DNA of 64,000 nucleotides from Microbacterium arborescens (GTDB lineage Bacteria > Actinomycetota > Actinomycetes > Actinomycetales > Microbacteriaceae): NCBI RefSeq assembly GCF_030369635.1, contig NZ_CP128474.1:3224001-3288000 (forward strand), given 5' to 3'. Each line of letters begins with the position of its first letter. Position 1 is the stretch's first letter. Below, piece by piece: positions 11,962-51,464 of the stretch. The notes beneath the pieces were generated by a model, which was not told the origin of the DNA, searched no databases, and saw nothing but the letters and a program-made list of their open reading frames with translations. The translations under genes were made by a program, and so were the position numbers.

Positions 11962-13398
11962 TCACGCCGACGCGGAACGCGCTCGAGGCCTCTCGTCCGC
12001 CAGCGCGCGATGGGCCGCGTTGTAGCCGCACATCCCGTGCACACCCGGCCCCGGCGGAGTGGCCGCCGAGCACAGGTAGACGCCGGGAACCCGGACGTCG
12101 TAGGGCGATGCCGCCGCTGCCGGGCCGAGGAGCAGCTGGCCGAGCGTCTTCGCCCCGGTGAGGATGTCGCCGCCGACGAAATTCGCGTTGTCGCGTGCGA
12201 GATCGCCTGTCGAGTAGCTGCGTTGCGCCACGATTCGGGAACGGAAACCGGGGGCGTAACGCTCGATCTGGCGGATGATGGCCGCCGTCGCGTCACCCGT
12301 GTATCCCTGCGGGACATGGGCGTAGGCGTACACGGGCGCCAGGCGGCCGACGCGGCGTGTCGGGTCGGCGACATCCTGCTGTCCGACGAGCACGAATGGC
12401 CGCTCGGGCATGCGGCCGCGCGAGGTCTCGGCCTCGGCCCGTGCGATCTCGGCGGCCGTTCCGCCGACGTGCACCGTTCCGGCGCGCGACACGTCCGGGT
12501 TGGTCCAGGGCACCCCGTCTTCGACGACGAAGTCGACCTTGAACGCGCCAGGTCCGCTCGTGAACCGCCGAAGACGGGTTTTACTCCAGCGCGGAAGAGC
12601 ATCGCCGACGATGCCCTCGACCTGCGTGGGATGTACATCGAGCATCAGGATGTCGTGGGGTGGCAGCTCCGCCCGGCTGCGAACCCGATGCCCGGTGACG
12701 AAGGTGACGCCGCGTTCCCGCAGCGAGGCGACGATCGCATCGGTGAGCTTCGAGGTACCCCCGACCACCACGGGCCACCCGACACCGTGAGCGGCGGTGA
12801 GAAGCGCGGCCGCCACCGCCCCCGCGAAGGGGCGTGAGAAGGGCTGGAACGAGTGAGCGGCGATCCCGGCGTACAGCGCTGCGGCGGGTTCAGAGGTCAG
12901 CAGCCGCGCGATCAGACTCGGCGGCGGAGCTGCGACCATTCCGAACCGGGCGAAGAGAAAGGGATGCCGCGGAATATGGAGCGGCGGTTCGAAGAGTTCC
13001 GGGGCGAGGGCATCGAAGCGGCGTGCCGGGGCGCCGAAGAGGCGACCCCACGCGGGTGCGCCGAGGCCGTGCAGGGTCATCTCCACCGATCGGTGCAGCA
13101 GTGCGGCGCGGCCGCCCTCGAGCGGATGAGCGACCTCGATCGACGCTTTGCCCCACTGCACATCCGGCGCAAGCTCGGCGATGTAGGGCGAGATGAGCGC
13201 GAGCGGATGCACAGCGGCGCAGTGGTCTTGGACGATCCCCGGGATCAGCGGCTCGGCCGCGCGGGCGCCGCCGCCCAGCACATCGTTCGCCTCGTAGACC
13301 GTCACGGCGTAGCCGGCCCGGTTGAGGACGTGGGCGGCGGCGAGCCCGTTGGGGCCGCTGCCGACGACGACGGCGGTGCCTTGCGCGACAGCGGCCAT
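11962..13398 (-). CDS. NAD(P)/FAD-dependent oxidoreductase, phytoene desaturase (CrtI) superfamily
   Basis: 478-residue flavoprotein with an N-terminal dinucleotide-binding motif (VVVGSGPNGLAAAHVLNRAG, residues ~11-30, then YEA) and a C-terminal CrtI-like closing segment (GVYLCSAATPPGPGVHGMCG near 440-460). This is the actinobacterial 'phytoene dehydrogenase-like' group related to mammalian PYROXD2; true carotenoid desaturases are normally next to crtB/crtE, absent here. Substrate unknown. Encoded alone, downstream of nothing obvious; its promoter lies in the ~80-bp gap shared with the end of the giant surface-protein gene, whose terminator is also there. Confidence 0.82.
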   Translation of the reverse strand: MAAVAQGTAVVVGSGPNGLAAAHVLNRAGYAVTVYEANDVLGGGARAAEPLIPGIVQDHCAAVHPLALISPYIAELAPDVQWGKASIEVAHPLEGGRAALLHRSVEMTLHGLGAPAWGRLFGAPARRFDALAPELFEPPLHIPRHPFLFARFGMVAAPPPSLIARLLTSEPAAALYAGIAAHSFQPFSRPFAGAVAAALLTAAHGVGWPVVVGGTSKLTDAIVASLRERGVTFVTGHRVRSRAELPPHDILMLDVHPTQVEGIVGDALPRWSKTRLRRFTSGPGAFKVDFVVEDGVPWTNPDVSRAGTVHVGGTAAEIARAEAETSRGRMPERPFVLVGQQDVADPTRRVGRLAPVYAYAHVPQGYTGDATAAIIRQIERYAPGFRSRIVAQRSYSTGDLARDNANFVGGDILTGAKTLGQLLLGPAAAASPYDVRVPGVYLCSAATPPGPGVHGMCGYNAAHRALADERPRARSASA

Positions 13399-13480: not shown

Positions 13481-16400
13481 TTACTCCGCCTCGACCTCCC
13501 GGTTCTTGCGGCGTCCGAAGACGGCAGCGAGCACGCCCAGGAGAGTCAGCATCGTTGCACCGATGCCGATACCCATGGCAGCCGCCGTGTCGCCTCCAGT
13601 ACGCGCGAGCGAGCCGTCGGACTTGCTCGACGCGCTGTTGCTCGACGCCTGAGCGCCGGGGTCGGTGCCGTTGTCGGCCGAGGCCGACGTCTCAGCGCCG
13701 GGGTCAACCGAAGCCGAGTTCTCAGCGCCCGGATCGACCGACGCAGACGCCGACGCGTTCACGTTGGTGTTCGGGTCAGCCGAGGAGTCAGCATCAGCCT
13801 GGAACTGCACCGAAGCATCCGTCGACGAGTTCGACGTTGCCGCCGCCTTCGCCGCCGACGAGGCGTCAGACTCTGCCGCGACCGACGCGTCAGCGTTGGT
13901 CTTGTCAGAGTTATCAGCCTGCGCGGCCGGGCTAGCCGAGACCTGAGCGGCAGCAGACGGGTCCGAAGACACATCAGCCGACGCCGCACTCGACGCATCC
14001 GGGTTAGCAGCAGCCTTCGCTGCAGCCTCCGCGTTCGGGGTTGCCGCAGCCGACGCAGCCGACTCAGCATCCGGGGATGCTGCAGCCTGAGCTGCGGCCT
14101 GAGCGGACGGGTTGCTGTTGTCATCAGCCTTCGCCGACGCCGACGCAGACGCCGAAGCGTTCACGTTGGTGTTCGGGTCAGCCGAGGAGTCAGCATCAGC
14201 CTGGAACTGCACCGAAGCATCCGTCGACGAGTTCGACGTTGCCGCCGCCTTCGCCGCCGACGAGGCGTCAGACTCTGCCGCGACCGACGCGTCAGCGTTG
14301 GTCTTGTCAGAGTTATCAGCCTGCGCGGCCGGGCTAGCCGAGACCTGAGCGGCAGCAGACGGGTCCGAAGACACATCAGCCGACGCCGCACTCGACGCAT
14401 CCGGGTTAGCAGCAGCCTTCGCTGCAGCCTCCGCGTTCGGGGTTGCCGCAGCCGACGCAGCCGACTCAGCATCCGGGGATGCTGCAGCCTGAGCTGCGGC
14501 CTGAGCGGACGGGTTGCTGTTGTCATCAGCCTTCGCCGACGCCGACGCAGACGCCGAAGCGTTCACGTTGGTGTTCGGGTCAGCCGAGGAGTCAGCATCA
14601 GCCTGGAACTGCACCGAAGCATCCGTCGACGAGTTCGACGTTGCCGCCGCCTTCGCCGCCGACGAGGCGTCAGACTCTGCCGCGACCGACGCGTCAGCGT
14701 TGGTCTTGTCAGAGTTATCAGCCTGCGCGGCCGGGCTAGCCGAGACCTGAGCGGCAGCAGACGGGTCCGAAGACACATCAGCCGACGCCGCACTCGACGC
14801 ATCCGGGTTAGCAGCAGCCTTCGCTGCAGCCTCCGCGTTCGGGGTTGCCGCAGCCGACGCAGCCGACTCAGCATCCGGGGATGCTGCAGCCTGAGCTGCG
14901 GCCTGAGCGGACGGGTTGCTGTTGTCATCAGCCTTCGCCGAAGCCGACGCAGACGCCGAAGCGTTCACGTTGGTGTTCGGGTCAGCCGAGGAGTCAGCAT
15001 CAGCCTGGAACTGCACCGAAGCATCCGTCGACGAGTTCGACGTTGCCGCCGCCTTCGCCGCCGACGAGGCGTCAGACTCTGCCGCGACCGACGCGTCAGC
15101 GTTGGTCTTGTCAGAGTTATCAGCCTGCGCGGCCGGGCTAGCCGAGACCTGAGCGGCAGCAGACGGGTCCGAAGACACATCAGCCGACGCAGCACTCGAC
15201 GCATCCGGGTTAGCCGCAGCCTTCGCTGCAGCCTCCGCGTTCGGGGTTGCCGCAGCAGAGGCAGCCGACTCAGCATCCGGGGATGCTGCAGCCTGAGCTG
15301 CGGCCTGAGCGGACGGGTTGCTGTTGTCATCAGCCTTCGCCGAAGCCGACGCAGACGCCGACGCGTTCACGTTGGTGTTCGGGTCAGCCGAGGAGTCAGC
15401 ATCAGCCTGGAACTGCACCGAAGCATCCGTCGACGAGTTCGACGTTGCCGCCGCCTTCGCCGCCGACGAGGCGTCAGACTCTGCCGCGACCGACGCGTCA
15501 GCGTTGGTCTTGTCAGAGTTATCAGCCTGCGCGGCCGGGCTAGCCGAGACCTGAGCGGCAGCAGACGGGTCCGAAGACACATCAGCCGACGCCGCACTCG
15601 ACGCATCCGGGTTAGCAGCAGCCTTCGCTGCAGCCTCCGCGTTCGGGGTTGCCGCAGCCGACGCAGCCGACTCAGCATCCGGGGATGCTGCAGCCTGAGC
15701 TGCGGCCTGAGCGGACGGGTTGCTGTTGTCATCAGCCTTCGCCGACGCCGACGCAGACGCCGAAGCGTTCACGTTGGTGTTCGGGTCAGCCGAGGAGTCA
15801 GCATCAGCCTGGAACTGCACCGAAGCATCCGTCGACGAGTTCGACGTTGCCGCCGCCTTCGCCGCCGACGAGGCGTCAGACTCTGCCGCGACCGACGCGT
15901 CAGCGTTGGTCTTGTCAGAGTTATCAGCCTGCGCGGCCGGGCTAGCCGAGACCTGAGCGGCAGCAGACGGGTCCGAAGACACATCAGCCGACGCCGCACT
16001 CGACGCATCCGGGTTAGCCGCAGCCTGAGCTGCAGCCTCCGCGTTCGGGGTTGCCGCAGCCGACGCAGCCGACTCAGCATCCGGGGATGCTGCAGCCTGA
16101 GCTGCGGCCTGAGCGGACGGGTTGCTGTTGTCATCAGCCTTCGCCGACGCCGACGCAGACGCCGAAGCGTTCACGTTGGTGTTCGGGTCAGCCGAGGAGT
16201 CAGCATCAGCCTGGAACTGCACCGAAGCATCCGTCGACGAGTTCGACGTTGCCGCCGCCTTCGCCGCCGACGAGGCGTCAGACTCTGCCGCGACCGACGC
16301 GTCAGCGTTGGTCTTGTCAGAGTTATCAGCCTGCGCGGCCGGGCTAGCCGAGACCTGAGCGGCAGCAGACGGGTCCGAAGACACATCAGCCGACGCAGCA

Positions 16401-19400
16401 CTCGACGCATCCGGGTTAGCCGCAGCCTTCGCTGCAGCCTCCGCGTTCGGGGTTGCCGCAGCCGACGCAGCCGACTCAGCATCCGGGGATGCTGCAGCCT
16501 GAGCTGCGGCCTGAGCGGACGGGTTGCTGTTGTCATCAGCCTTCGCCGAAGCCGACGCAGACGCCGACGCGTTCACGTTGGTGTTCGGGTCAGCCGAGGA
16601 GTCAGCATCAGCCTGGAACTGCACCGAAGCATCCGTCGACGAGTTCGACGTTGCCGCCGCCTTCGCCGCCGACGAGGCGTCAGACTCTGCCGCGACCGAC
16701 GCGTCAGCGTTGGTCTTGTCAGAGTTATCAGCCTGCGCGGCCGGGCTAGCCGAGACCTGAGCGGCAGCAGACGGGTCCGAAGACACATCAGCCGACGCCG
16801 CACTCGACGCATCCGGGTTAGCAGCAGCCTTCGCTGCAGCCTCCGCGTTCGGGGTTGCCGCAGCCGACGCAGCCGACTCAGCATCCGGGGATGCTGCAGC
16901 CTGAGCTGCGGCCTGAGCGGACGGGTTGCTGTTGTCATCAGCCTTCGCCGAAGCCGACGCAGACGCCGAAGCGTTCACGTTGGTGTTCGGGTCAGCCGAG
17001 GAGTCAGCATCAGCCTGGAACTGCACCGAAGCATCCGTCGACGAGTTCGACGTTGCCGCCGCCTTCGCCGCCGACGAGGCGTCAGACTCTGCCGCGACCG
17101 ACGCGTCAGCGTTGGTCTTGTCAGAGTTATCAGCCTGCGCGGCCGGGCTAGCCGAGACCTGAGCGGCAGCAGACGGGTCCGAAGACACATCAGCCGACGC
17201 CGCACTCGACGCATCCGGGTTAGCAGCAGCCTTCGCTGCAGCCTCCGCGTTCGGGGTTGCCGCAGCCGACGCAGCCGACTCAGCATCCGGGGTCGCTGCA
17301 GCCTGAGCTGCGGCCTGAGCGGACGGGTTGCTGTTGTCATCAGCCTTCGCCGAAGCCGACGCAGACGCCGACGCGTTCGCATTGGCCTGGAACTCCGACG
17401 ACGCATCCGTCGACGAGTTCGACGTCGCCGACGCCTTCGCCGCACTGGATGCATCAGCGTTCACCGACGCCGAAGCATCAGCGTTCACCTTGTCCGAGTT
17501 ATCCGCGTTCGCAGCCGGGCTCGCCGAGACCTGCGCGGCAGCAGACGGGTCCGAAGACACATCAGCCGACGCCGCACTCGACGCATCCGGGTTAGCCGCA
17601 GCCTTCGCTGCCGCTTCCGCGTTCGGGGTTGCCGCAGCCGACGCAGCCGACTCAGCATCCGGGGTCGCTGCAGCCTGAGCCGCCGCCTGAGCGGACGGGT
17701 TGCTGTTGTCATCAGCCTTCGCCGAAGCCGACGCAGACGCAGACGCGTTCGCATTGGCCTGGAACTCCGACGACGCATCCGTCGACGAGTTCGACGTCGC
17801 CGACGCCTTCGCCGCACTGGATGCATCAGCGTTCACCGACGCCGAAGCATCAGCGTTCACCTTGTCCGAGTTATCCGCGTTCGCAGCCGGGCTAGCCGAG
17901 ACCTGCGCGGCAGCAGACGGGTCCGAAGACACATCAGCCGACGCCGCACTCGACGCATCCGGGTTAGCCGCAGCCTGAGCTGCAGCCTCCGCGTTCGGGG
18001 TCGCCGCAGCCGACGCAGCCGACTCAGCATCCGGGGTCGCTGCAGCCTGAGCCGCCGCCTGAGCGGACGGGTTGCTGTTGTCATCAGCCTTCGCCGAAGC
18101 CGACGCAGACGCCGACGCGTTCGCATTGGCCTGGAACTCCGACGACGCATCCGTCGACGAGTTCGACGTCGCCGACGCCTTCGCCGCACTGGATGCATCA
18201 GCGTTCACCGACGCCGAAGCATCAGCGTTCACCTTGTCCGAGTTATCCGCGTTCGCAGCCGGGCTCGCCGAGACCTGCGCGGCAGCAGACGGGTCCGAAG
18301 ACACATCAGCCGACGCCGCACTCGACGCATCCGGGTTAGCCGCAGCCTTCGCTGCCGCTTCCGCGTTCGGGGTTGCCGCAGCAGAGGCAGCCGACTCAGC
18401 ATCCGGGGATGCTGCAGCCTGAGCCGCCGCCTGAGCGGACGGGTTGCTGTTGTCATCAGCCTTCGCCGAAGCCGACGCAGACGCAGACGCGTTCACGTTG
18501 CTCTGGGGCTCCTCGACCGGGGTCTTCGTCGAATCCTCGGGCGACTCGACGTTGCCGGGCTCGCCGGGCTGTCCCGGGGGCACGTTGCCCGTCGCGAGCG
18601 CGGTGTTCTCCACCGAACCCTTCTTCGCGTCGTCGGCAGTGATCACGTACGGCTCGGTCGACTCGCACTCAGCCGACTGGCCGGGCGCGAGAGCGATCGG
18701 GTCGCAGCTGACGCCGACGCCGGCGTTCTGCAGGAACTCGTCGCGGATCGCAATGTTCTCGATGTTCGCGATTCCGGTGTTGGTGACCTTGAACCGCCAG
18801 AAGATCTGGTCGCCCGGGTCGGTGATGCCGTTGTTATTCGTGTCGACGACCTTCGAGACCTCCTTGTCGAGGTTCAGACGTGCGGTCACAACCCGCGCAC
18901 AGTCGGTGGAGGACGTGTTGTTCCCGTAGTCGGGGTCATCCTCCATGCCCACCAGCTCGGCCGTGTTCGTCACACAGCCGCTGATGTCGTTCGCGGCCGT
19001 GACGCGGACGCGGAAATCGATCTTCTCGCCGGCTCCGACCTCACCGCCGTTGATGAGCAGAGTCTCCCGGCCGTCTGCGCCCGTCTGGGTGGTCAGCGTG
19101 ACACCCGGGCTGTCGACCAGGATCGCGTTGCTCAGCCCCGCGGGGAGCACGTCCTTGAGGAACCAGCCTCCCGACGGGGAACTGCCGACGTTGCTCACCG
19201 TGAACGAGTACTCGAACGACTCACCGGGCATGAACTCCACCGGGCCGGTCTTCTTCAGCGCGATGTCAGCCGGGTCACCGAAGTTGTAGGCCCCATCGTT
19301 GTCGATAGTGGAGTTCGCCGTCCCCACGCCTATCACTTCAGCGACCTGTGAGCCGGCGACACGTACATGCACGACCCTGCCGGAGGCGTTGTCGACAAAC

Positions 19401-20131
19401 CCGAGCAACCCGGATCCCGTCACCCAGGCAGCACCGTAGTTAGTCGTCCCGCCCGTCCGGAGTCCCGGCGCGTCGATCCTCGTCACAGTGTTGCTGGATA
19501 CGTCATAGCGCAGCAGGTACCCACCCGAACTCGCCGACCAGAAGTAGCCGTCCGCGTAGACAAGATCGTTCGGGCTGTCGTTTCGCACAGTCCCCGAGAA
19601 GGTGTGGGTCTCCTGCGCACCCGTTGCGAGGTCGATCGAGGCGATGACCGTTCCACCGGTCGAGTAGAACCACAACTTCCCGTCGTGGTATTCCATGCCC
19701 GACCAGCCCGTCACATTCGGTGCGACGGGTCCGGTCAGCCCGGCCACTCGGGTCGCCACACCACCCTGACCGATGCGATAGAGCGGGTCGCGCACCGCGG
19801 TGCCCGGGTAGAGCGTCGCATAGATGAAGCCGTCATCCGGGTTGAAAGCCATCGTCGACAGGTCGCCCGGCTGGACGGAACCCAATCGGTCGAAGCTGTA
19901 CTGTCCCGATGTCGGCGAGTATTTGACGTCAAAGAGCGAACCGGCAGATGTCCGGTTCGATTGCAGGAGCCATACCTGAGTCTTGTCGGTGGGCCACGGG
20001 TCACCCGCAGCCGCATTGGCCGCGGTCGCCGCACCCATCACGGCGAGGCTGATGACAGCCGCCCCCGCGCCGACCGTCAGCGCTCTGCGCTTCCAACGCC
20101 CCGGCGGGCGTGCATGTTGCTCATTCGTCAT
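13481..20131 (-). CDS. Giant LAXTG-anchored repeat surface protein with DUF11 domains
   Basis: 2216-residue wall-anchored protein. In order: signal peptide (residues ~1-41, cleavage near ANAAAG); a propeller-like head (~45-290) with repeating FNPDDGFIYATLYP- and YADGYFWSASSGGYL-type blades (DUF6923-like); two DUF11-like beta-sandwiches (~295-420 and ~420-535); a Pro/Glu linker; twelve tandem repeats (~545-2130); a sorting signal LARTG (2175-2179), a hydrophobic helix and a basic tail. The repeats use only eleven amino acids (A, S, D, N, P, T, Q, K, E, V, F) with a single Phe per unit, so they probably form a long, flexible or disordered stalk. LAXTG is the class E sortase motif; the enzyme is not in the window. 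AAAGGAG lies 10 nt before the ATG. An adhesin role is inferred. Confidence 0.88.
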   Translation of the reverse strand: MTNEQHARPPGRWKRRALTVGAGAAVISLAVMGAATAANAAAGDPWPTDKTQVWLLQSNRTSAGSLFDVKYSPTSGQYSFDRLGSVQPGDLSTMAFNPDDGFIYATLYPGTAVRDPLYRIGQGGVATRVAGLTGPVAPNVTGWSGMEYHDGKLWFYSTGGTVIASIDLATGAQETHTFSGTVRNDSPNDLVYADGYFWSASSGGYLLRYDVSSNTVTRIDAPGLRTGGTTNYGAAWVTGSGLLGFVDNASGRVVHVRVAGSQVAEVIGVGTANSTIDNDGAYNFGDPADIALKKTGPVEFMPGESFEYSFTVSNVGSSPSGGWFLKDVLPAGLSNAILVDSPGVTLTTQTGADGRETLLINGGEVGAGEKIDFRVRVTAANDISGCVTNTAELVGMEDDPDYGNNTSSTDCARVVTARLNLDKEVSKVVDTNNNGITDPGDQIFWRFKVTNTGIANIENIAIRDEFLQNAGVGVSCDPIALAPGQSAECESTEPYVITADDAKKGSVENTALATGNVPPGQPGEPGNVESPEDSTKTPVEEPQSNVNASASASASAKADDNSNPSAQAAAQAAASPDAESAASAAATPNAEAAAKAAANPDASSAASADVSSDPSAAAQVSASPAANADNSDKVNADASASVNADASSAAKASATSNSSTDASSEFQANANASASASASAKADDNSNPSAQAAAQAAATPDAESAASAAATPNAEAAAQAAANPDASSAASADVSSDPSAAAQVSASPAANADNSDKVNADASASVNADASSAAKASATSNSSTDASSEFQANANASASASASAKADDNSNPSAQAAAQAAATPDAESAASAAATPNAEAAAKAAANPDASSAASADVSSDPSAAAQVSASPAANADNSDKVNADASASVNADASSAAKASATSNSSTDASSEFQANANASASASASAKADDNSNPSAQAAAQAAATPDAESAASAAATPNAEAAAKAAANPDASSAASADVSSDPSAAAQVSASPAAQADNSDKTNADASVAAESDASSAAKAAATSNSSTDASVQFQADADSSADPNTNVNASASASASAKADDNSNPSAQAAAQAAASPDAESAASAAATPNAEAAAKAAANPDASSAASADVSSDPSAAAQVSASPAAQADNSDKTNADASVAAESDASSAAKAAATSNSSTDASVQFQADADSSADPNTNVNASASASASAKADDNSNPSAQAAAQAAASPDAESAASAAATPNAEAAAKAAANPDASSAASADVSSDPSAAAQVSASPAAQADNSDKTNADASVAAESDASSAAKAAATSNSSTDASVQFQADADSSADPNTNVNASASASASAKADDNSNPSAQAAAQAAASPDAESAASAAATPNAEAAAQAAANPDASSAASADVSSDPSAAAQVSASPAAQADNSDKTNADASVAAESDASSAAKAAATSNSSTDASVQFQADADSSADPNTNVNASASASASAKADDNSNPSAQAAAQAAASPDAESAASAAATPNAEAAAKAAANPDASSAASADVSSDPSAAAQVSASPAAQADNSDKTNADASVAAESDASSAAKAAATSNSSTDASVQFQADADSSADPNTNVNASASASASAKADDNSNPSAQAAAQAAASPDAESAASAAATPNAEAAAKAAANPDASSAASADVSSDPSAAAQVSASPAAQADNSDKTNADASVAAESDASSAAKAAATSNSSTDASVQFQADADSSADPNTNVNASASASASAKADDNSNPSAQAAAQAAASPDAESAASAAATPNAEAAAKAAANPDASSAASADVSSDPSAAAQVSASPAAQADNSDKTNADASVAAESDASSAAKAAATSNSSTDASVQFQADADSSADPNTNVNASASASASAKADDNSNPSAQAAAQAAASPDAESAASAAATPNAEAAAKAAANPDASSAASADVSSDPSAAAQVSASPAAQADNSDKTNADASVAAESDASSAAKAAATSNSSTDASVQFQADADSSADPNTNVNASASASASAKADDNSNPSAQAAAQAAASPDAESAASAAATPNAEAAAKAAANPDASSAASADVSSDPSAAAQVSASPAAQADNSDKTNADASVAAESDASSAAKAAATSNSSTDASVQFQADADSSADPNTNVNASASASVDPGAENSASVDPGAETSASADNGTDPGAQASSNSASSKSDGSLARTGGDTAAAMGIGIGATMLTLLGVLAAVFGRRKNREVEAE
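13741..18500 (-). repeat. Twelve tandem coding repeats (3 x 372 bp, then 9 x ~402 bp)
   Basis: The core encoding ADDNSNPSAQ recurs twelve times. Adjacent copies at the N-terminal side are 372 bp apart (three units of 124 residues) and the rest 402 bp apart (134 residues). Short units end in SSEFQANA; long units end in VQFQADADSSADPNTNV and use T/AAES variants in the second half. Units are nearly identical at DNA level. The few differences (for example GCC/GCA or GAC/GAA in the Ala-Asp tract, and Lys/Gln or Ala/Ser-Pro/Thr-Pro swaps) are shuffled between copies, as expected from recombination between units. Short-read assemblies may misstate copy number. Confidence 0.93.
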
Positions 20132-20215
20132 TCTGAGCGTTCTCCTTTGTTATCGGAAGTACCGGTGTCCCGGTGCTCTTCCCCCAATACGCCGACCGGC
20201 CGAGCCGGACGGCGG

Positions 20216-21388
20216 TCACCGCGAGCCCGCTCCCACGAGCTGCGCGGAGTCTGTGTGGTCCTGGGCTTCGGCCGCGGAGGGATCGACGTCCTCGGTCGTG
20301 GCAGGCATGCGCTGAACCTGGAGTTCTCCCCCTCCGGGACTCGATGCGGCCGCACGCCACTTCTCCGTGAATGTCTGAGCGATTCCCGCCCAAGACCGGT
20401 CGCGGATGAAGATCGCATCGATCGCGACCATCGTCAGCGAGAACCAGGGCAGGCCCATGAGCACGGCGATTCCGATGTGGAAGCCGAGCATTCCGAACAG
20501 CGCGATCAGTCGGGTCGGGCGCGTCAGCAGCATGAACGGGAATCCCGCCTGCAGGAACAGCGTGCCGAGTGTCAGGAAGGCGACAGCCGGCCCCCAGGCC
20601 ATGAAGAAGTCCGACAACGCGGGCCAGGTGCCGAAACGCGCCGTCTCGAGCGGGTGATAGATCGCCCAGCCCTCACGCCAGGGTGCGCCGCCGGCCTTGA
20701 ACAGGGCGCCCGAGGTGTACACGAAGATGACCTGTGCGGCCAGAGCGACGAGCGTGAGGTTGTGCGCGACGATGCCGATCTGACGCGGCGCGGATCCATC
20801 GCGGAACCACTCGCCCTTGCGTGCCCGACGGCGAGCGTCGAGCGACCACCGCGCGGCAGGGTCAGCGAAGAAGAGCAGGATCATCGCGATGCGGAACATG
20901 TTGTCGCCCTGGTCGCCGACCATGTCGTTGGCCTCGATGAAACCGACCCAGAGGCAGAAGAACACCGGAAGCACGACGCGGAATCGCCAGCCGAGGATGA
21001 ACAGGATGCTCAGGCCGATCAGCGCGACGTAGAGCGTGGAGTAGGCCAGGTCGTTGCCCATGGCGTTGTGGAATGACGAGAAGAGCCAGATTCTCGGAAA
21101 GTCGCTGAGCGGGTCCGCCATCTCGCGGTTCCAGGCGGAGCCCGAGCCGAACGAGTAGTAGCGGGTGTTGAAGTTCGTCAGCAGCAGTCCGAGTCCGGTG
21201 AGGCCGAACAGGATGCGGGTCACGGCCAGGCCGTAGAGCGCCTTCTTCGAGTCATGAAGCCAGTGGTTCGCGGCCGAGAACGTGCGGGTCGCGGCGACAG
21301 TCGTGGTCTGTGCGAACTGCGCGATGAGCGAGCCGACGAAGGTGAGGATGCGGGGCGTCGCCGTAGCGTTCGAGTCGGTGGTGCTCAT
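20216..21388 (-). CDS. HTTM domain-containing membrane protein
   Basis: 390-residue polytopic membrane protein of the HTTM (vitamin-K-dependent gamma-carboxylase-like) family. Segments such as ALYGLAVTRILFGLTGLGLLL, GDQGDNMFRIAMILLFF and TRPTRLIALFGMLGFHIGIAVLMGL-type helices fit a four-to-eight-helix core. Bacterial members are mostly of unknown function. The gene overlaps the upstream DUF5819 gene by 4 bp (ATGA), and this pairing recurs in actinobacteria. It ends 85 bp before the giant surface-protein start on the same strand, but that gap has its own strong ribosome-binding site. A role in processing or exporting surface molecules is possible but not shown. Confidence 0.85.
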   Translation of the reverse strand: MSTTDSNATATPRILTFVGSLIAQFAQTTTVAATRTFSAANHWLHDSKKALYGLAVTRILFGLTGLGLLLTNFNTRYYSFGSGSAWNREMADPLSDFPRIWLFSSFHNAMGNDLAYSTLYVALIGLSILFILGWRFRVVLPVFFCLWVGFIEANDMVGDQGDNMFRIAMILLFFADPAARWSLDARRRARKGEWFRDGSAPRQIGIVAHNLTLVALAAQVIFVYTSGALFKAGGAPWREGWAIYHPLETARFGTWPALSDFFMAWGPAVAFLTLGTLFLQAGFPFMLLTRPTRLIALFGMLGFHIGIAVLMGLPWFSLTMVAIDAIFIRDRSWAGIAQTFTEKWRAAASSPGGGELQVQRMPATTEDVDPSAAEAQDHTDSAQLVGAGSR

Positions 21389-22209
21389 CGGTTCAGGCCC
21401 TTCAGGTAGGTCTCGTACTGCGACCGGAACACCTCGGCGAAGCGGTCTTCGTTCTGTCCCGGCTCGGTGAACACCTCGCGCCAGCCCGGGCGGATGACGG
21501 TCGGGTCGGGGCGCTGAGCGTTCGGGTTGTTGCGCTCGGCGAACGGCACGACGTTCTGGCGGCTCACGCGGAACTGAACCGCGGTGACGTCGTCTCCCCA
21601 GATCGCGTGGGCGACCTGGGTCGCATAAGCGGTCGCCATGCGGTCGTCGCCGACGTAGGCGTCGGGATCGACCTCGTCGTCAGCACTCTCGAGCTCGGCC
21701 GACAGCGTCGACAGCCACTCGTCACCCATGTGGTTCTCGAGGGTCAGCGCGCGCTGGCTCTCGGACAGCCCGTCCCACGACTTCTTGAAGTTGCTCGCGA
21801 GTTCCTCGGCCTGGATGCCGGCCCGCGGCGGGAACAGGTTGTTCTTCACCATGGAGAGCTCGACATCGGTCGCGCTCACCCAGCCGGTCTCGGACTCGTT
21901 ACCCGCGTCATCTGTCACGAGGGCGCGAACGTTGAAGTGATAGTCGCCGTTGATCGGCTCGGGCGCGAACACACTCCACGACTGACCGAACAGCGGCAGC
22001 ATGTACGAGCTGAGCGCGTTCTCGGGAGGGAGCTGGCGCAGCGCCGAGGGCGGATAGATCCACAAGAACGAGGCGAAGACGTGCCACGCCGTCAACAGCA
22101 CCAGTGCCGTCGAGACGATGCGCACCGTCCATCGTGTCGACGCCTTGGCGTCTCCGTCGTTTCTCGCGGGCGTCGGCCTCCACCGCGCCGATGGCATTGT
22201 CCTGGTCAT
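21385..22209 (-). CDS. DUF5819 family protein
   Basis: 274-residue protein with one N-terminal membrane helix (IVSTALVLLTAWHVFASFLW, residues ~31-50) followed by a soluble extracytoplasmic domain. The segment MLPLFGQSWSVFAPEPIN is typical of DUF5819. No function is assigned. It is translated just before the HTTM gene with an ATGA overlap, suggesting the two act together in the membrane. The start could also be the ATG four codons later (MPSARW). The upstream gap to the E2 gene carries its promoter. Confidence 0.8.
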   Translation of the reverse strand: MTRTMPSARWRPTPARNDGDAKASTRWTVRIVSTALVLLTAWHVFASFLWIYPPSALRQLPPENALSSYMLPLFGQSWSVFAPEPINGDYHFNVRALVTDDAGNESETGWVSATDVELSMVKNNLFPPRAGIQAEELASNFKKSWDGLSESQRALTLENHMGDEWLSTLSAELESADDEVDPDAYVGDDRMATAYATQVAHAIWGDDVTAVQFRVSRQNVVPFAERNNPNAQRPDPTVIRPGWREVFTEPGQNEDRFAEVFRSQYETYLKGLNR

Positions 22210-46399: not shown

Positions 46400-47302
46400 T
46401 CACCGCAGGCGGCGACGCGGGCGAGCGAGCCATCCCGCGGCCACCGCGGACGCGGTGAGGGCAACGATCCACCAGGGGAAAGCCTGCTCGGCGACATCGG
46501 GCGGAAGCGTCTCATCGGCGAGACCGCTCGAGACGGTCTCGACCCGCGCGCCGCGGACGAGGAGCCGGTGGGTGTTGATGCCGGTCGGTGTGCACGTCAG
46601 GAGCGTGACGTAGTCGCCGTTCGGATCTCGGCGAAGGAGCTCTGCGTCTTCAGGCGTGACCGTGAGGATCTGATCGATCTCGTAGGTGAGGGTCTGCCCC
46701 GCGACCTCGATGAAGAAGCGGTCACCGACCTTCAGCTCGTGCAGGTCGGTGAAGAGCCGCGCCCCGGGCAGCCCGGAATGGCCGGTGAGGACGGCGTGCG
46801 TGTCGAGGCCGCCCGTCGGCACACTCGAACCGAGCAGATGCCCGATCCCCTTGTCGAGGGTTGCCGGGTCCGTGCCGTGGTAGACGGGCAGGTCGAGCGA
46901 TATCTCGGGGATGCGTACGCGCGCCATCGGCGCATTCAAGCCGGTCGACAGCTGGGCGTTGTAATAGTCGACATCACCGGCAGCCGGCGCGGGCGACCCG
47001 GCCTCGGTGAGGACGTAGGGATCGCGCAGAGGCCCCTGGGGAAGCCGCGTGTTGTAGTCCTTCGCTTCGGCGAGAAGCCGCTGCAGCTCGGCCGGCGGGG
47101 CAGCCTCGACGCGCTCGACGTACCCGGACACCTCGGTCGCGTGGGCGCGGTCTGAGAGCCACTGCGCAGCCGACGGGTAGAGCAGGATGCTCACTCCCAA
47201 CAGCATCGCGAGAGCCGCGAAGAGGTGGACCGGCGACCAGCGTCGTCGCGAGAGTCGACGACGGCCACGCCTCGTCGGAGGCATGGCCGTCGTCGCGCTC
47301 AT
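46400..47302 (-). CDS. Class C (pilus-polymerising) sortase
   Basis: 300-residue transpeptidase with N-terminal and C-terminal membrane segments (HLFAALAMLLGVSILLYPSA and PWWIVALTASAVAAGWLA). Catalytic triad: His in LTGHSGLP (~175), Cys in VTLLTCTP (TLxTC, ~236) and Arg in THRLLVRG (~244). A DPY tripeptide in PLRDPYVL (~95) fits the lid motif of class C sortases, which cross-link pilins. Gene order tip protein, pilin, sortase with gaps of 26-43 bp is a typical minimal actinobacterial pilus operon. Confidence 0.9.
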   Translation of the reverse strand: MSATTAMPPTRRGRRRLSRRRWSPVHLFAALAMLLGVSILLYPSAAQWLSDRAHATEVSGYVERVEAAPPAELQRLLAEAKDYNTRLPQGPLRDPYVLTEAGSPAPAAGDVDYYNAQLSTGLNAPMARVRIPEISLDLPVYHGTDPATLDKGIGHLLGSSVPTGGLDTHAVLTGHSGLPGARLFTDLHELKVGDRFFIEVAGQTLTYEIDQILTVTPEDAELLRRDPNGDYVTLLTCTPTGINTHRLLVRGARVETVSSGLADETLPPDVAEQAFPWWIVALTASAVAAGWLARPRRRLR

Positions 47303-47328
47303 GTGATGGTCGCCCGGGAACGGCCGGA

Positions 47329-48813
47329 TCAGGCCCGGGCGCGCCGCGCGCGCGACACGATGAAGAGCGCTGCTCCGCCGACGACCAGCACCCCGCCCGC
47401 GAGGTAGAGCAGCCCTGTTCCGGTTCCACCGGTCAGCGGAAGCTGGAAACCGGCGTTGCTCGGGACGTTCGTGACCGTCATGTCGATCCCGGTCGCCGTG
47501 CTCGCAGCGTTCACGAGGAAGCTCACGGGCTGAGCGAGCAGTTCGTAGCCGTCCGGCGACTGCGTCTCGACGAGGTAGTAGCGGATGAAGCCGGGGTCGC
47601 CCTCGGCGACCGTGGCACCGTTGGCGAAGTCGGAGTACCGCAGACCGTTGATGGTGAGCTCACCGCTGGTGGCGGTGACCTCGAACTCCGTCACTCCGTC
47701 GATGCTCACCGCGTTCGTCTGCGCGAGAGCGTCGGCCTCGCTGGTGAAGATCGCGAACTTCGCGCCGGTGAGCGCCTCTCCCCCCGTGCCCGCCTTCTGG
47801 AGGGTCATACCACCCCAGCGGGTCTCGACCGTCGGGGTGAGGACGGGGCCGCCGGGGTCGCCGGCTGCTGCGTCGAAGCTCGCGGCGTTGGGGTACAGCA
47901 CGGCCTGGTTCTCGATCTCACCGATCGCGTTGGCGGACGTGATGATGTTCACGATCACGCGAGTGCTGTTGTTCGCGGCCAGGACGGCGCGGCCGGCTGC
48001 CGTGAACTCCACCCGCACCGAGTTGGTCGCCTCGTCGAAGCCAATCGTGTAGTCGGTTCCCTCGCCGAGGGCGGTACCGCTCTCGAGCGCGACGGCTGTC
48101 GAGACGTAGTCGAGCTTGGCATCGAGGGTGTCGACGATGCGGTAGCCGTCGATGACCGACTCGTTAGGGATGTCGGTCGCGATCGTGAAACGAACCTCGT
48201 CGCCCAGTCCACGGGCGGTCGCGTCGGTGACGGTCTTCTCCGCCGCCGTCGTCGAGTTCTTCGGGTACACGTGCACGTCGTAGAGCCACGTGTCGTTGCT
48301 GTTCGGGTCGGTCAGCGGCACGGTGACGACGAACGGCACGCTCGGGGTGATGCCCGGGCCGTAGCCCGTCTCCTCGACGACGTAGACGCCGACGGGAAGC
48401 CCACCGAAGAGGGCCTCGCCGTCCGCGCCCGTGGTCTGCGTCGTCCCGCTCGAGAGGGTGTACCCCTCCGCAGTGATCGACCCCTCGGGATCGCCGGCGT
48501 TGAAAGAGGCGGCGAGGTCGGATGCCGCCGCCAGGCCGGCGTTCGTGCTGAGGTCGAGCCCCTGCACCTGGCGCGCGCGGAATGTGATTCCCTCGAGAGG
48601 CGTCAGCCCGGTCGTGTCGACTTCCGTACCGTTGTTCGGCAGTCCCGTCGGCGACTCCGGCCGGTCGAATTTGTGGATGGTGATCGACCCGGTCTCATCG
48701 GGGTCGATCACAGGGGCGGCGCTGGCGGGCGCGGCGAACGACAACGCTGTCAGGACCGCTATGGCAGCCGCAGCGAAAGCGCTGGCCGCGCGTGATCGTG
48801 TGCTCGTGGACAA
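47329..48813 (-). CDS. LPXTG-anchored major pilin (SpaH/SpaA type)
   Basis: About 494 residues. Signal peptide (residues 1-~32, ending PASAAP), pilin motif in WLYDVHVYPKN (Lys ~184), E-box YYLVETQSPDGYEL (Glu ~414), Cna-B/SpaA-type domain, sorting signal LPLTG (458-462), hydrophobic helix and basic tail. Class C sortase joins the pilin-motif lysine to the LPXTG threonine of the next subunit. TTG at 48813 is preferred as start because AAGGAG lies 5-6 nt upstream and the signal peptide begins there; a TTG at 48855 is possible. Lies between tip gene and sortase. Confidence 0.9.
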   Translation of the reverse strand: MSTSTRSRAASAFAAAAIAVLTALSFAAPASAAPVIDPDETGSITIHKFDRPESPTGLPNNGTEVDTTGLTPLEGITFRARQVQGLDLSTNAGLAAASDLAASFNAGDPEGSITAEGYTLSSGTTQTTGADGEALFGGLPVGVYVVEETGYGPGITPSVPFVVTVPLTDPNSNDTWLYDVHVYPKNSTTAAEKTVTDATARGLGDEVRFTIATDIPNESVIDGYRIVDTLDAKLDYVSTAVALESGTALGEGTDYTIGFDEATNSVRVEFTAAGRAVLAANNSTRVIVNIITSANAIGEIENQAVLYPNAASFDAAAGDPGGPVLTPTVETRWGGMTLQKAGTGGEALTGAKFAIFTSEADALAQTNAVSIDGVTEFEVTATSGELTINGLRYSDFANGATVAEGDPGFIRYYLVETQSPDGYELLAQPVSFLVNAASTATGIDMTVTNVPSNAGFQLPLTGGTGTGLLYLAGGVLVVGGAALFIVSRARRARA

Positions 48814-48856
48814 GAGTGCTCCTTGGGTGAGTGATCGTGTTTCGGGAAGTGCCAAG

Positions 48857-51013
48857 TCAGGAGGTGGGGTCGTGCTTCACCCGGGCGCGGTGGAGTGCAC
48901 CGAACGCGAGGAGGATGAGGATGCTCCCGGCGAGGTACACGGCGCCCTCGCCGGGGCCGCCAGTGGCGGGGAGGACGTACCGCGGCACGTCCTCGACCCG
49001 GATCGTCGCGACCCCGTCGACATCGACAACTGACAGGGTGGCCGCAGCATCGGTCAGGACGATCGTGCCCGCGGCGTCGACGGTGAACCCCACCCGCTGC
49101 GCGAGGAGCTGAAACCCCGGAAGCGCCCGCGTCTCTTCGAGGTAGTAGGAGCCCGCTTCGAGGGAAGTCACGAACAGTCCGATTGCCGGCTGCCCGGAAT
49201 CGTCGGTCCGCGGAGGCAGGGGGGCCCGAACGGGGGTGCCGCCCTGGGCGGCGGCGTACACGGCCCACAGCGAGCCGTCCATCGGAACGACCTGCCCCGT
49301 CGCGGACTCCCCGACCTTCTGCACCTGCACCAGCGAAGGAGTGACCTGCAGCGTCGAGCAGTTCTCGTCACAGGCAGCCGGCGGGTACAGACCCGTTCCG
49401 CTCACCGTGTTCCGGAGCTCACGCGACCAGGAGTCCGCGCCGACGACGACGTCGTACGAGAGCACGGCGCTCGCGCCGGGCGGCAGAACCACAGGTCCGG
49501 CCGTCAGCGAGTCCCCGGAGGGGTCGGCTACGGGCTGAGGCGTTCCGCCGGCCACCACGAGGGAGCCCGAGCCTGCCGTGAAGGTCGCATCGTCGAGGAC
49601 GCCGGCGAGGTCGTCGGTGAGGACGACATCCGGGACTGCGGCGGTGCCGGTGTTCGCGGCGGTCACTCGGTAGCTCAGGGTATCTCCCGGCTGAACGGTC
49701 GCTCCGTCGGCGAGCGGCTGCCCGTCCAGGAACGCGGCTTTCGCGAGACTCCATTCGCGGGTCACGGAGCAGGCCTGGGCCGACCCGCTGTCGTTCGCGG
49801 CGTTCGAGTCCGCTTCGTTGCCCTCGACGGTCGCGACGTTGGTCCGGCATTCGCCGACCGGCACGTTCGTGTTGACGGCGATGCGGAACGTGGTGGAGGC
49901 GCCGACGGCCAGACGGCCGCCGGCGACGGAGATCCTGTCGCCCGTCACCGTGGCGGTGACCCCGGCTGATATCGTCGGGTCGCTCATGCCTGCGGGCAAT
50001 GTGTCGATCACGGTCCATCCGCTCGAGGAGCCGGAACCGTTGTTCGTCACCGTGAGCTCGTATTCGATCCGGCTGCCGCTCACGAACTCGGCGGGCCCGG
50101 TCTTCGTGATCGAAAGGTCTGCAGGCAGGCCCGGGATCGACGTGCCGTCATTGAGGGTGGAGGACGGACCGGTGACCGGATCCGCTACTTCAAAGGTGGG
50201 GTTGGCGGAAGCGGGGTTGGAGATGACCACCTGGTACACCAAGCCGGTGCTGTTCGCCGAAAGGCCCAGGTTTCCGTTTCCGAACGTCCAGACCGCTCCG
50301 TAGCCGGCAGCCGAGTCGGGGAGGACACCCGTGAATCTCGTGATGTTGCCCGTGTTCATGTCGATACGGCGGATGCTGCCATTCGATGCCGAGCCCCACG
50401 CATATCCGTCTTTGAACGCGAAATCCGGCACGAACAGCTGGTTGTTGTTGCTCGCGATCGGGTCGCGCAGGGCGATTGTCTTGGCGACGGCGCCGGTGGC
50501 CACGTTGAGCGCGAGAACATTCGCGCTGTTCGTGCTGCCGATATAGAAAAGCCCGTCGGCCGGGTTGAACGCACCCGAGAAGAACTGCCGGGACCCGGAG
50601 ACCGGGTCGGAGTAGATCGTGGTCCCCACACGTGTCACGACGCCGCCCTGGCCGATGCGGACGAGTGATCCTTGAGGGAAGTTCCCTCCCGTCTCGGACA
50701 CGATTCCGTAGATGTAGTTGTCAGCCGGGTTGAATCCGATCGCGTTGTAGCCCGATGATGCACGCCCGCCCTCGTTCACGAAGGTGAACGATCCGTCGCC
50801 GCGCGTCTCCGCGCGCTGCAGCTGCGTCGGGGTCCCCTGGGAGATGAAGACGGTCGGCGTCGACGGGTCGAACGGATCGCCCGCGGCCGCCTGCGCCGAC
50901 GGCGCCCCACCGCCGACCAGCATTCCGCCGACGAGCACGGCAACGCCGGCGAGCATCGCGAGAAGACGCTTTCCGCGGTTCGACGATCTCGGCTTCGCCA
51001 CGAAACGTCGCAT
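48857..51013 (-). CDS. LPXTG-anchored pilus tip/adhesin protein with propeller-like head
   Basis: About 718 residues. Signal peptide (1-~42, ending AQAAAG); propeller-like head (~45-300) with FNPADNYIYGIV, LVRIGQGGVVTRVG and FNPADGLFYIGS blades; two DUF11-like domains (from LSITKTGPAEFVSGSRIEYE to ~535); a SpaA-type domain with E-box YYLEETRALPGFQLL; sorting signal LPATG (681-685) and basic tail. The head and first DUF11 domain match those of the giant LARTG protein. As first gene of the pilus operon with an LPXTG signal, it is the likely tip adhesin. ATG 51013 begins at a clean signal peptide; upstream frame is not coding-like. Confidence 0.87.
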   Translation of the reverse strand: MRRFVAKPRSSNRGKRLLAMLAGVAVLVGGMLVGGGAPSAQAAAGDPFDPSTPTVFISQGTPTQLQRAETRGDGSFTFVNEGGRASSGYNAIGFNPADNYIYGIVSETGGNFPQGSLVRIGQGGVVTRVGTTIYSDPVSGSRQFFSGAFNPADGLFYIGSTNSANVLALNVATGAVAKTIALRDPIASNNNQLFVPDFAFKDGYAWGSASNGSIRRIDMNTGNITRFTGVLPDSAAGYGAVWTFGNGNLGLSANSTGLVYQVVISNPASANPTFEVADPVTGPSSTLNDGTSIPGLPADLSITKTGPAEFVSGSRIEYELTVTNNGSGSSSGWTVIDTLPAGMSDPTISAGVTATVTGDRISVAGGRLAVGASTTFRIAVNTNVPVGECRTNVATVEGNEADSNAANDSGSAQACSVTREWSLAKAAFLDGQPLADGATVQPGDTLSYRVTAANTGTAAVPDVVLTDDLAGVLDDATFTAGSGSLVVAGGTPQPVADPSGDSLTAGPVVLPPGASAVLSYDVVVGADSWSRELRNTVSGTGLYPPAACDENCSTLQVTPSLVQVQKVGESATGQVVPMDGSLWAVYAAAQGGTPVRAPLPPRTDDSGQPAIGLFVTSLEAGSYYLEETRALPGFQLLAQRVGFTVDAAGTIVLTDAAATLSVVDVDGVATIRVEDVPRYVLPATGGPGEGAVYLAGSILILLAFGALHRARVKHDPTS

Positions 51014-51464
51014 CCTGACCCCCAGACAACCTGTCTCGAGTTCAGGAGGCCGAGACAGCCTGTCTATCCTCGATGAGGTGCCGCCGTTTCGGTGGGGAAC
51101 TGCGCCAAATAGGACGTCGGCCGCGCGCATCGAGACAACCGACGGAGTTCCTGCATGGGGCCGGCTGGCCGGTGAGGGTCTCATAGCGGGCACACCTGCC
51201 CCGCCCACGAGATGGATGGGTTCACGCGCCACGCTGGGTGGACGACGCGTCCGAGCAGTCCGACGTGAACCGTATCCCCGGCGACGGCCGCCACGGCAGC
51301 GGTCATGCCCGGCGGCGACTCGCCACGAGGGCCCCGACAGGTCCGCGCTGCGTGAGCCCGCATGCTGCCACGCATCCCTCACGACTGGCCAGAGGTGCGC
51401 GGGAGGGCTCGGATGGGGGTGGAATGGGATCACCGCTAAGAACCGCTACGAAGGGACACCCACC
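51014..51464. other. 451-bp divergent promoter region upstream of the pilus operon
   Basis: Gap between the pilus operon (minus strand) and the alcohol dehydrogenase (plus strand). No gene with a ribosome-binding site or recognisable product. It carries two 13-bp palindromes close to the pilus start (51024-51065), and a GAAGGGA-type ribosome-binding site at its right end for the dehydrogenase. Confidence 0.65.
51024..51065. promoter_or_regulatory. Two AGACA-NNC-TGTCT palindromes before the pilus operon
   Basis: AGACAACCTGTCT at 51024-51036 and AGACAGCCTGTCT at 51053-51065, 29 bp apart centre to centre, 11 and 40 bp upstream of the tip-protein start. Matched spacing and position suggest a dimeric regulator site. 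The regulator is not identifiable in the window. Confidence 0.55.

What the first reader, a model, noticed from the sequence alone, without database searches (positions are those of the whole stretch)
13481..20131. 2216-residue wall protein with twelve near-identical repeats in an eleven-letter alphabet
About 71% of the protein is 124- or 134-residue repeats made only of A, S, D, N, P, T, Q, K, E, V and F, with one Phe per unit and no Gly, aromatic Tyr/Trp, Leu, Ile, Cys, Met, His or Arg. Three short units precede nine long ones, and sequence variants are shuffled among copies, indicating recombination that keeps units alike and copy number variable. The regular single Phe and acidic/polar content suggest a specific stalk rather than random low complexity.
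Basis: partly seen in the sequence, partly recalled or inferred. Interest (0 to 1): 0.75.

Follow-up and report, generated by a model that had tools for sequence, protein, structure and literature searches.

The report
Repeat-stalk wall protein with gene partners
A Microbacterium carries a wall-anchored protein whose head sits on a long, probably floppy stalk of twelve almost identical repeats, and two neighbouring genes that travel with such stalk proteins in many relatives probably help to finish or modify it.

Summary
In detail: 2216 aa, minus strand 20131-13481, three 124-aa and nine 134-aa units (aa 545-2122, 71%), exactly eleven residue types, one Phe per unit, one-contig genome. The head is a predicted beta-propeller/Ig/Ig; the tail is an LARTG sorting signal; two repeat units get no predicted fold (pLDDT 35). 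A same-species draft has two units, so length probably varies. Site patterns support recombination, excess synonymous change supports constraint on the protein. The Phe is not a conserved landmark.

The more interesting result lies outside the given coordinates. The wall gene follows DUF5819 and HTTM. Of 198 same-genus genomes, 28 have the repeat; in 26 a DUF5819-HTTM pair lies beside the repeat protein, in two the array runs off a contig. Of 27 fetched DUF5819-HTTM pairs elsewhere in the family, 21 have a sortase-signal neighbour, usually with a low-complexity stalk; in another family 0 of 6 do. The HTTM proteins keep the lysine that aligns with the catalytic base of human vitamin-K-dependent carboxylase. 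I infer that the pair matures stalked wall proteins; this is untested. Searches of the open-access library found no paper naming DUF5819 or 'choice-of-anchor G'.

The parts
13481..20131 (-). wall protein gene, 2216 aa
   Evidence: ORF; units and tail
20006..20131 (-). signal-peptide-like N-terminus, aa 1-42 (read by eye)
   Evidence: sequence; no signal-peptide program was run
19283..19963 (-). DUF6923, aa 57-283; predicted beta-propeller
18905..19267 (-). DUF11 domain, aa 289-409
   Evidence: PF01345 E 8.8e-15
18566..18841 (-). DUF7507 domain, aa 431-522
   Evidence: PF24346 E 3.7e-19
17384..18499 (-). three 124-aa repeat units, aa 545-916
13766..17383 (-). nine 134-aa repeat units, aa 917-2122
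13484..13609 (-). sorting signal: LARTG, hydrophobic stretch, basic tail, aa 2175-2216
   Evidence: sequence; scored by my rule
20132..20215 (-). 84-nt gap with a Shine-Dalgarno-like AAAGGAG; identical in AG238
20216..21388 (-). HTTM membrane-protein gene, 390 aa; K231 and H304 invariant in 19 of 19 aligned proteins
   Evidence: PF05090 E 9e-11
21385..22209 (-). DUF5819 gene, 274 aa; overlaps the HTTM start by 4 nt
   Evidence: PF19136 E 2.7e-39
11962..13398 (-). FAD-dependent oxidoreductase gene, 478 aa, 82 nt after the wall gene; an occasional further neighbour of the pair in relatives
   Evidence: Pfam; relatives near 9 of 65 fetched family loci

Best explanation
This is a sortase-anchored surface protein. 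A folded propeller/Ig/Ig head is held away from the wall by a disordered, acidic Ala/Ser-rich stalk whose length changes by gain and loss of near-identical units. The two genes just upstream, DUF5819 and HTTM, are partners of such stalked wall proteins and most likely mature them at the membrane (modify or process them) before or while sortase attaches them. Shown by sequence: architecture, homology of the units to those of other wall proteins, gene linkage, and the conserved HTTM lysine. Inferred: disorder (a prediction), adhesion by the head, and any maturation step.
For: Array and anchor. Head folds with confidence, two units do not: pLDDT 88.2 against 34.8. 12 versus 2 units at 7 of 1632 nt head differences. 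Within-class variable sites are mostly synonymous, 10 of 13 and 9 of 12 against 27% expected (p 2e-4 and 6e-4; sites are not independent). Linkage from the repeat: 26 of the 28 repeat-positive genomes (198 searched) have DUF5819-HTTM beside the repeat protein, the other two arrays run off contig ends; the second array of genome G166 also has the pair, 2 kb upstream. From HTTM: 17 of 20 fetched loci have DUF5819 by my models, 15 of these 17 (the window among them) a same-strand sortase-signal neighbour. From DUF5819 in the family: 27 of 27 fetched loci have HTTM, 21 of 27 such a neighbour. In 59 genomes, HTTM in 9 of 9 repeat-positive against 11 of 50 others, Fisher p 1.3e-5. The link follows stalk and anchor more than head: heads are DUF6923 here, SdrD_B-like in L170, DUF11-like in the second G166 protein, choice-of-anchor G in 7 of 8 scanned; this genome's own choice-of-anchor G protein ends without stalk or sorting signal and has no pair within the 19 kb fetched around it.
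Against: No expression, localisation or biochemical data; linkage does not show that the pair acts on the stalk. In family f25, 0 of 6 fetched DUF5819-HTTM loci have a sortase-signal neighbour. In the genus L119 and L128, in the family L162 and L185, and in f33 L253 have none by my rule; L167 and L169 have an Ala/Ser-rich neighbour without a scored signal, L172 a candidate 1.4 kb off, L176 a low-complexity protein 3 kb off. Gene order differs from the usual one: here the pair comes first. The 2-unit AG238 allele is from a draft assembly and could be a collapse.
Confidence: 0.62

Rival explanations
1. The pair serves the choice-of-anchor G head or another shared feature of these proteins; the stalk is a plain spacer.
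For: 7 of 8 partner proteins scanned carry choice-of-anchor G.
Against: The window protein, L170 and the second G166 protein have other heads but keep the pair; the choice-of-anchor G protein of this genome has no pair in the 19 kb around it.
Confidence: 0.15
2. The pair works like SdpA-SdpB: it processes a secreted precursor and releases a peptide, the wall protein being its carrier.
For: 19 of 19 HTTM proteins match the SdpB model TIGR04033 (best E 3.7e-20; window 54.3 bits). [quoted passage not shown]
Against: The window's score is far under the curated cut-off of 178.4; no SdpC-like family in the wall protein. Immunity genes were not searched for.
Confidence: 0.12
3. The stalk is an O-mannosylated, mucin-like spacer made by the general protein mannosyltransferase, and the neighbouring pair does something else.
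For: Array is 24.7% Ser+Thr; the genome has a PMT match in a 531-aa frame.
Against: Does not account for the gene linkage; no glycosylation evidence.
Confidence: 0.2
4. The array is functionless low-complexity expansion, or an assembly artefact.
For: Very high identity; large copy-number difference to AG238.
Against: Excess synonymous change; 57-62% identity to units of three other wall proteins; one-contig genome; a further array of the kind in G166.
Confidence: 0.08

Closest known systems
Periscope Proteins (SasG, Rib, Sgo_0707; PMC8201768, abstract, introduction excerpt and one results section seen)
   Same: N-terminal domain, array of near-identical repeats, wall attachment, repeat number that varies
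   Different: Their repeats are folded domains forming rods; here no fold is predicted and no Pfam repeat matches
choice-of-anchor G proteins (NF033766), mostly of Microbacterium
   Same: homologous Ala/Ser-rich units, sortase anchor, DUF5819-HTTM neighbours
   Different: head is DUF6923-DUF11-DUF7507 here; the pair precedes the wall gene
Human vitamin-K-dependent gamma-carboxylase GGCX (PF05090; PDB 9wfn and others)
   Same: profile match E 3.8e-6; positions of K218, W223, H287 and F299 conserved in 19 of 19
   Different: Glu-pocket residues N158/N159/H160 not conserved; protein about half as long, so the later substrate-binding part seems absent; activity unknown
SdpA-SdpB of Bacillus subtilis (TIGR04033)
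   Same: HTTM-type membrane protein with a second gene and a secreted product
   Different: under the family cut-off; the product is a huge wall protein, not SdpC
Ser-Asp stalks of staphylococcal Clf/Sdr proteins (recalled; weak matches to three partner proteins)
   Same: acidic low-complexity wall-proximal stalk
   Different: different sequence; no DUF5819-HTTM link known to me

Membership tests
Periscope Proteins | long, highly identical tandem repeats | tested here: met
Periscope Proteins | wall attachment signal at the C-terminus | tested here: met
   LARTG signal by sequence only
Periscope Proteins | repeat number differs between strains | tested here: inconclusive
   12 versus 2 units in the same species, but AG238 is a draft
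Periscope Proteins | repeats are folded domains forming a rod | tested here: not met
   AF2 pLDDT 34.8, pTM 0.17 with 8 rows; no Pfam repeat. A prediction, not a measurement
Periscope Proteins | N-terminal ligand-binding domain | tested here: inconclusive
   propeller/Ig head, ligand unknown
choice-of-anchor G family (NF033766) | choice_anch_G domain | tested here: not met
   no match; the genome's one match is another gene
HTTM family PF05090 | score over the curated cut-off | tested here: met
   42.3 against 27.7 bits
vitamin-K-dependent carboxylases | catalytic lysine (K218 of GGCX) | tested here: met
   K231, 19 of 19
vitamin-K-dependent carboxylases | Glu-binding residues N158, N159, H160 | tested here: not met
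   aligned columns differ; residues named in PMC12589487 (passages)
vitamin-K-dependent carboxylases | carboxylation activity | not testable with these tools
   needs biochemistry
SdpB family TIGR04033 | score over the curated cut-off | tested here: not met
   54.3 against 178.4 bits

The most novel reading that the evidence does not exclude
DUF5819-HTTM is a menaquinone-dependent maturation enzyme, a bacterial cousin of the blood-clotting carboxylase, whose natural clients are the low-complexity stalks of sortase-anchored wall proteins. It would add acid groups, more likely to Asp than to Glu since many partner stalks hold almost no Glu, and so make stalks that bind calcium or stiffen on demand; the FAD-dependent oxidoreductase found beside some of the modules could supply the reduced quinone.
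Probability: 0.15. Interest if true: 0.92.

Novelty: new variant of a known kind. Interest (0 to 1): 0.6.

Why it matters
If right, it gives a family without known role (DUF5819) and bacterial HTTM proteins of this type a class of likely clients, and adds disordered, length-variable stalks to the known rod-like ones. It also gives a genetically simple place, one pair and one such stalk protein in this genome, to ask what bacterial relatives of GGCX do.

Tried and rejected
Regular Phe as structural landmark: rejected. Repeat as a known Pfam or NCBIfam domain: none found. Solved relatives: none of the whole protein at E 0.01; none convincing of DUF5819 (best E 0.67).

Orthologues with the same head and array: of 198 same-genus genomes, 25 have a head relative at E<=1e-20 and 28 the repeat at E<=1e-6; by their coordinates the two fall in one gene only in the window's own genome. 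Of 366, only the own genome and G288 (same species, same coordinates as AG238) match at E<=1e-60. One search printed 15 of 17 head loci asked for; six showed an antisense frame, so eight stalks were not seen there. P0096 (570 aa) and P0097 (759 aa), both called partial by their source, end inside the array; P0095 (611 aa) ends inside the first unit. The candidate lists were capped at about 8,000.

Promoter/terminator scan uninformative. Foldseek integrin rows for the head span several domains at high rmsd and were not used. Paper searches: DUF5819 0 papers, 'choice-of-anchor G' 0. For HTTM with LPXTG or sortase, 1,086 papers hold two of three terms and the 5 listed hold HTTM 0 times, so absence of such a paper is not shown. 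Searches served for listings. A find in PMC9704523 gave one reference only.

The Ala/Ser-rich and sorting-signal rules are my own thresholds; by that rule 40 of 523 called genes of 100 aa or more in 47 loci carry a signal, partners included. The gene caller took some Ala/Ser-rich genes for antisense frames; counts are from the six-frame versions. In one search, 74 of 92 pairs over 86 loci have a neighbour, but 19 of the 86 loci were chosen for the repeat, so I quote sub-counts. The comparison with 17 other sortase ORFs is small and uncurated. In G135 (L201) the wall gene is spread over two overlapping frames; it is counted among the 26.

A FAD-dependent oxidoreductase as fixed fourth member: not supported. 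Relatives lie in 9 of 65 fetched family loci (19, 27, 18 and the second G166 locus), six of them on the same strand within 0.6 kb of the pair, and in 0 of 20 loci fetched after the class-wide search.

Full report
WHAT IS THERE. The gene runs from 20131 down to 13481 and encodes 2216 aa. Its array (aa 545-2122) has three 124-aa units followed by nine 134-aa units and uses exactly eleven residue types. The nine long units differ pairwise by 0-9 of 402 nt, and seven of the nine are identical in protein. TRF sees one array of period 402 with 12.1 copies. The genome is one contig. It is a Microbacterium: its nearest held relative, called the same species, is Microbacterium sp. AG238.

STALK. Two units fold to mean pLDDT 34.8 with weak short helices. 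The array carries a net charge of -149 over 1578 residues. As a random coil I estimate an end-to-end distance near 39 nm for twelve units against 13 nm for two (formula recalled). The repeat search found 94 proteins; three of them aligned to two window units are 57-62% identical, and in the five whose sequences I read the units lie between a folded head and the sorting signal. Genome G166 has another array of the kind: 25 exact 342-nt copies in register and 30 starts in all (TRF 30.2 copies).

VARIATION. AG238 (L080, the same record as G288) has an orthologue of 906 aa with two long units, 7 of 1632 nt head differences, 1 of 285 nt tail differences and an identical 84-nt gap. In the first 246 nt, 76 of 210 pairs of two-state sites show all four combinations among the twelve units, which needs recombination or repeated mutation. 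Variable sites within each class are mostly synonymous, 10 of 13 and 9 of 12, against 27% expected.

NEIGHBOURS. Upstream lie DUF5819 (21385-22209) and HTTM (20216-21388), overlapping by four bases; the wall gene follows after 84 nt. I tested whether this is accidental. Of 198 same-genus genomes, 28 have the repeat; for all 28 the locus was fetched, and 26 have DUF5819 and HTTM on the same strand beside the repeat protein; the G187 and G043 arrays run off contig ends, and the G043 contig that holds the pair ends in a sortase-signal protein. G166 has two repeat genes: the second, with the 30-copy array, also has DUF5819 and HTTM upstream, in the window's order, with a FAD-dependent oxidoreductase between. 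Of 59 same-genus genomes searched for HTTM, 20 have it: 9 of 9 repeat-positive and 11 of 50 others. Of the 20 loci fetched, one per genome, 17 have DUF5819 and 15 of these a sortase-signal neighbour. Of 199 family genomes, 27 have DUF5819; I fetched the 27 over-cut-off matches not already in hand. All 27 have HTTM; 21 have a same-strand sortase-signal neighbour, L167 and L169 an Ala/Ser-rich one without a scored signal, L172 a candidate 1.4 kb downstream, L176 a low-complexity protein 3 kb off, L162 and L185 none. Class-wide, 65 of 345 genomes match DUF5819; of 20 loci that I chose, 0 of 6 in f25 and 13 of 14 others have a sortase-signal neighbour for at least one pair; in f26 the module is sometimes doubled.

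WHAT THE PARTNERS SHARE. Partner stalks need not be this repeat: VDADGMDAD, TDPGTEPG, SPDASTDT, TDTEA, TDAAG and DVDADV types occur. The wall-proximal stretch of 70 partners is of lower complexity than that of 17 other sortase ORFs in the same loci (median entropy 2.24 against 3.60 bits, p 3e-7); Asp reaches 8% in 59 of 70 and Glu 3% in 21 of 70. Eleven of 70 fall under 8% Asp, so Asp-richness is a tendency, not a rule. Of eight partner proteins scanned, seven have the choice-of-anchor G head; L170 has an SdrD_B-like one, the second G166 protein only a DUF11 match, the window protein DUF6923. This genome's own choice-of-anchor G protein (580 aa) shows neither stalk nor sorting signal and no pair in the 19 kb around it. 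That favours stalk and anchor over head as the common target.

THE PAIR. The HTTM profile of 19 proteins matches human GGCX at E 3.8e-6. K231, W237, H304 and F316 are invariant in 19 of 19 and align with GGCX K218, W223, H287 and F299. K218 is the base that deprotonates the quinol; W223 and F299 line its pocket (PMC12589487, passages; the number of H287 follows from F286 and N290 given there). The Glu-holding N158, N159, H160 are not conserved. The genome has two VKOR matches and a PMT match. All 19 HTTM proteins also match the SdpB model, the window's far under cut-off. DUF5819 has no convincing solved relative.

HOW IT MOST LIKELY WORKS. Shown: architecture, homology of the units, linkage, conserved lysine. 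Inferred: the protein is secreted, the pair matures it at the membrane, sortase fixes it, and the disordered stalk displays the head at a distance set by unit number. The chemistry is open; quinone-dependent acid addition is the boldest reading and SdpAB-like processing a sober rival.

KNOWN KINDS. It works like a Periscope Protein but fails the folded-repeat criterion by prediction, so I do not file it there. By head it is not a choice-of-anchor G protein.

Noticed in passing
window 46544-51433, minus strand: Pilus-type locus: sortase, pilin-like protein (GramPos_pilinD1, SpaA) and a DUF6923-headed sortase substrate related to the wall protein's head.
   Followed up: partly
window 11962-13398; L081 1373-2890; L123, L128, L164, L170, L177: A FAD-dependent oxidoreductase of one family lies beside some of the modules; a possible electron donor.
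   Followed up: partly
L081 4726-15007 (genome G166): Thirty 342-nt repeat starts, 25 copies exact in register; the spacing is 311 nt once, which changes the frame. Left as found.
   Followed up: partly
L244, L246, L247 (family f26): DUF5819-HTTM-wall protein module occurs twice in tandem.
   Followed up: partly
L237-L242 (family f25): DUF5819-HTTM pairs in genomes of 6-10 Mb without a sortase-signal neighbour; partner there unknown.
   Followed up: no
L009 956-6646, minus strand: 1896-aa head paralogue of the same genome with many DUF11-like repeats in place of the stalk.
   Followed up: partly
L201 7913-13247 (genome G135): Repeat-bearing wall gene spread over two overlapping frames; error or real break not decided.
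   Followed up: no
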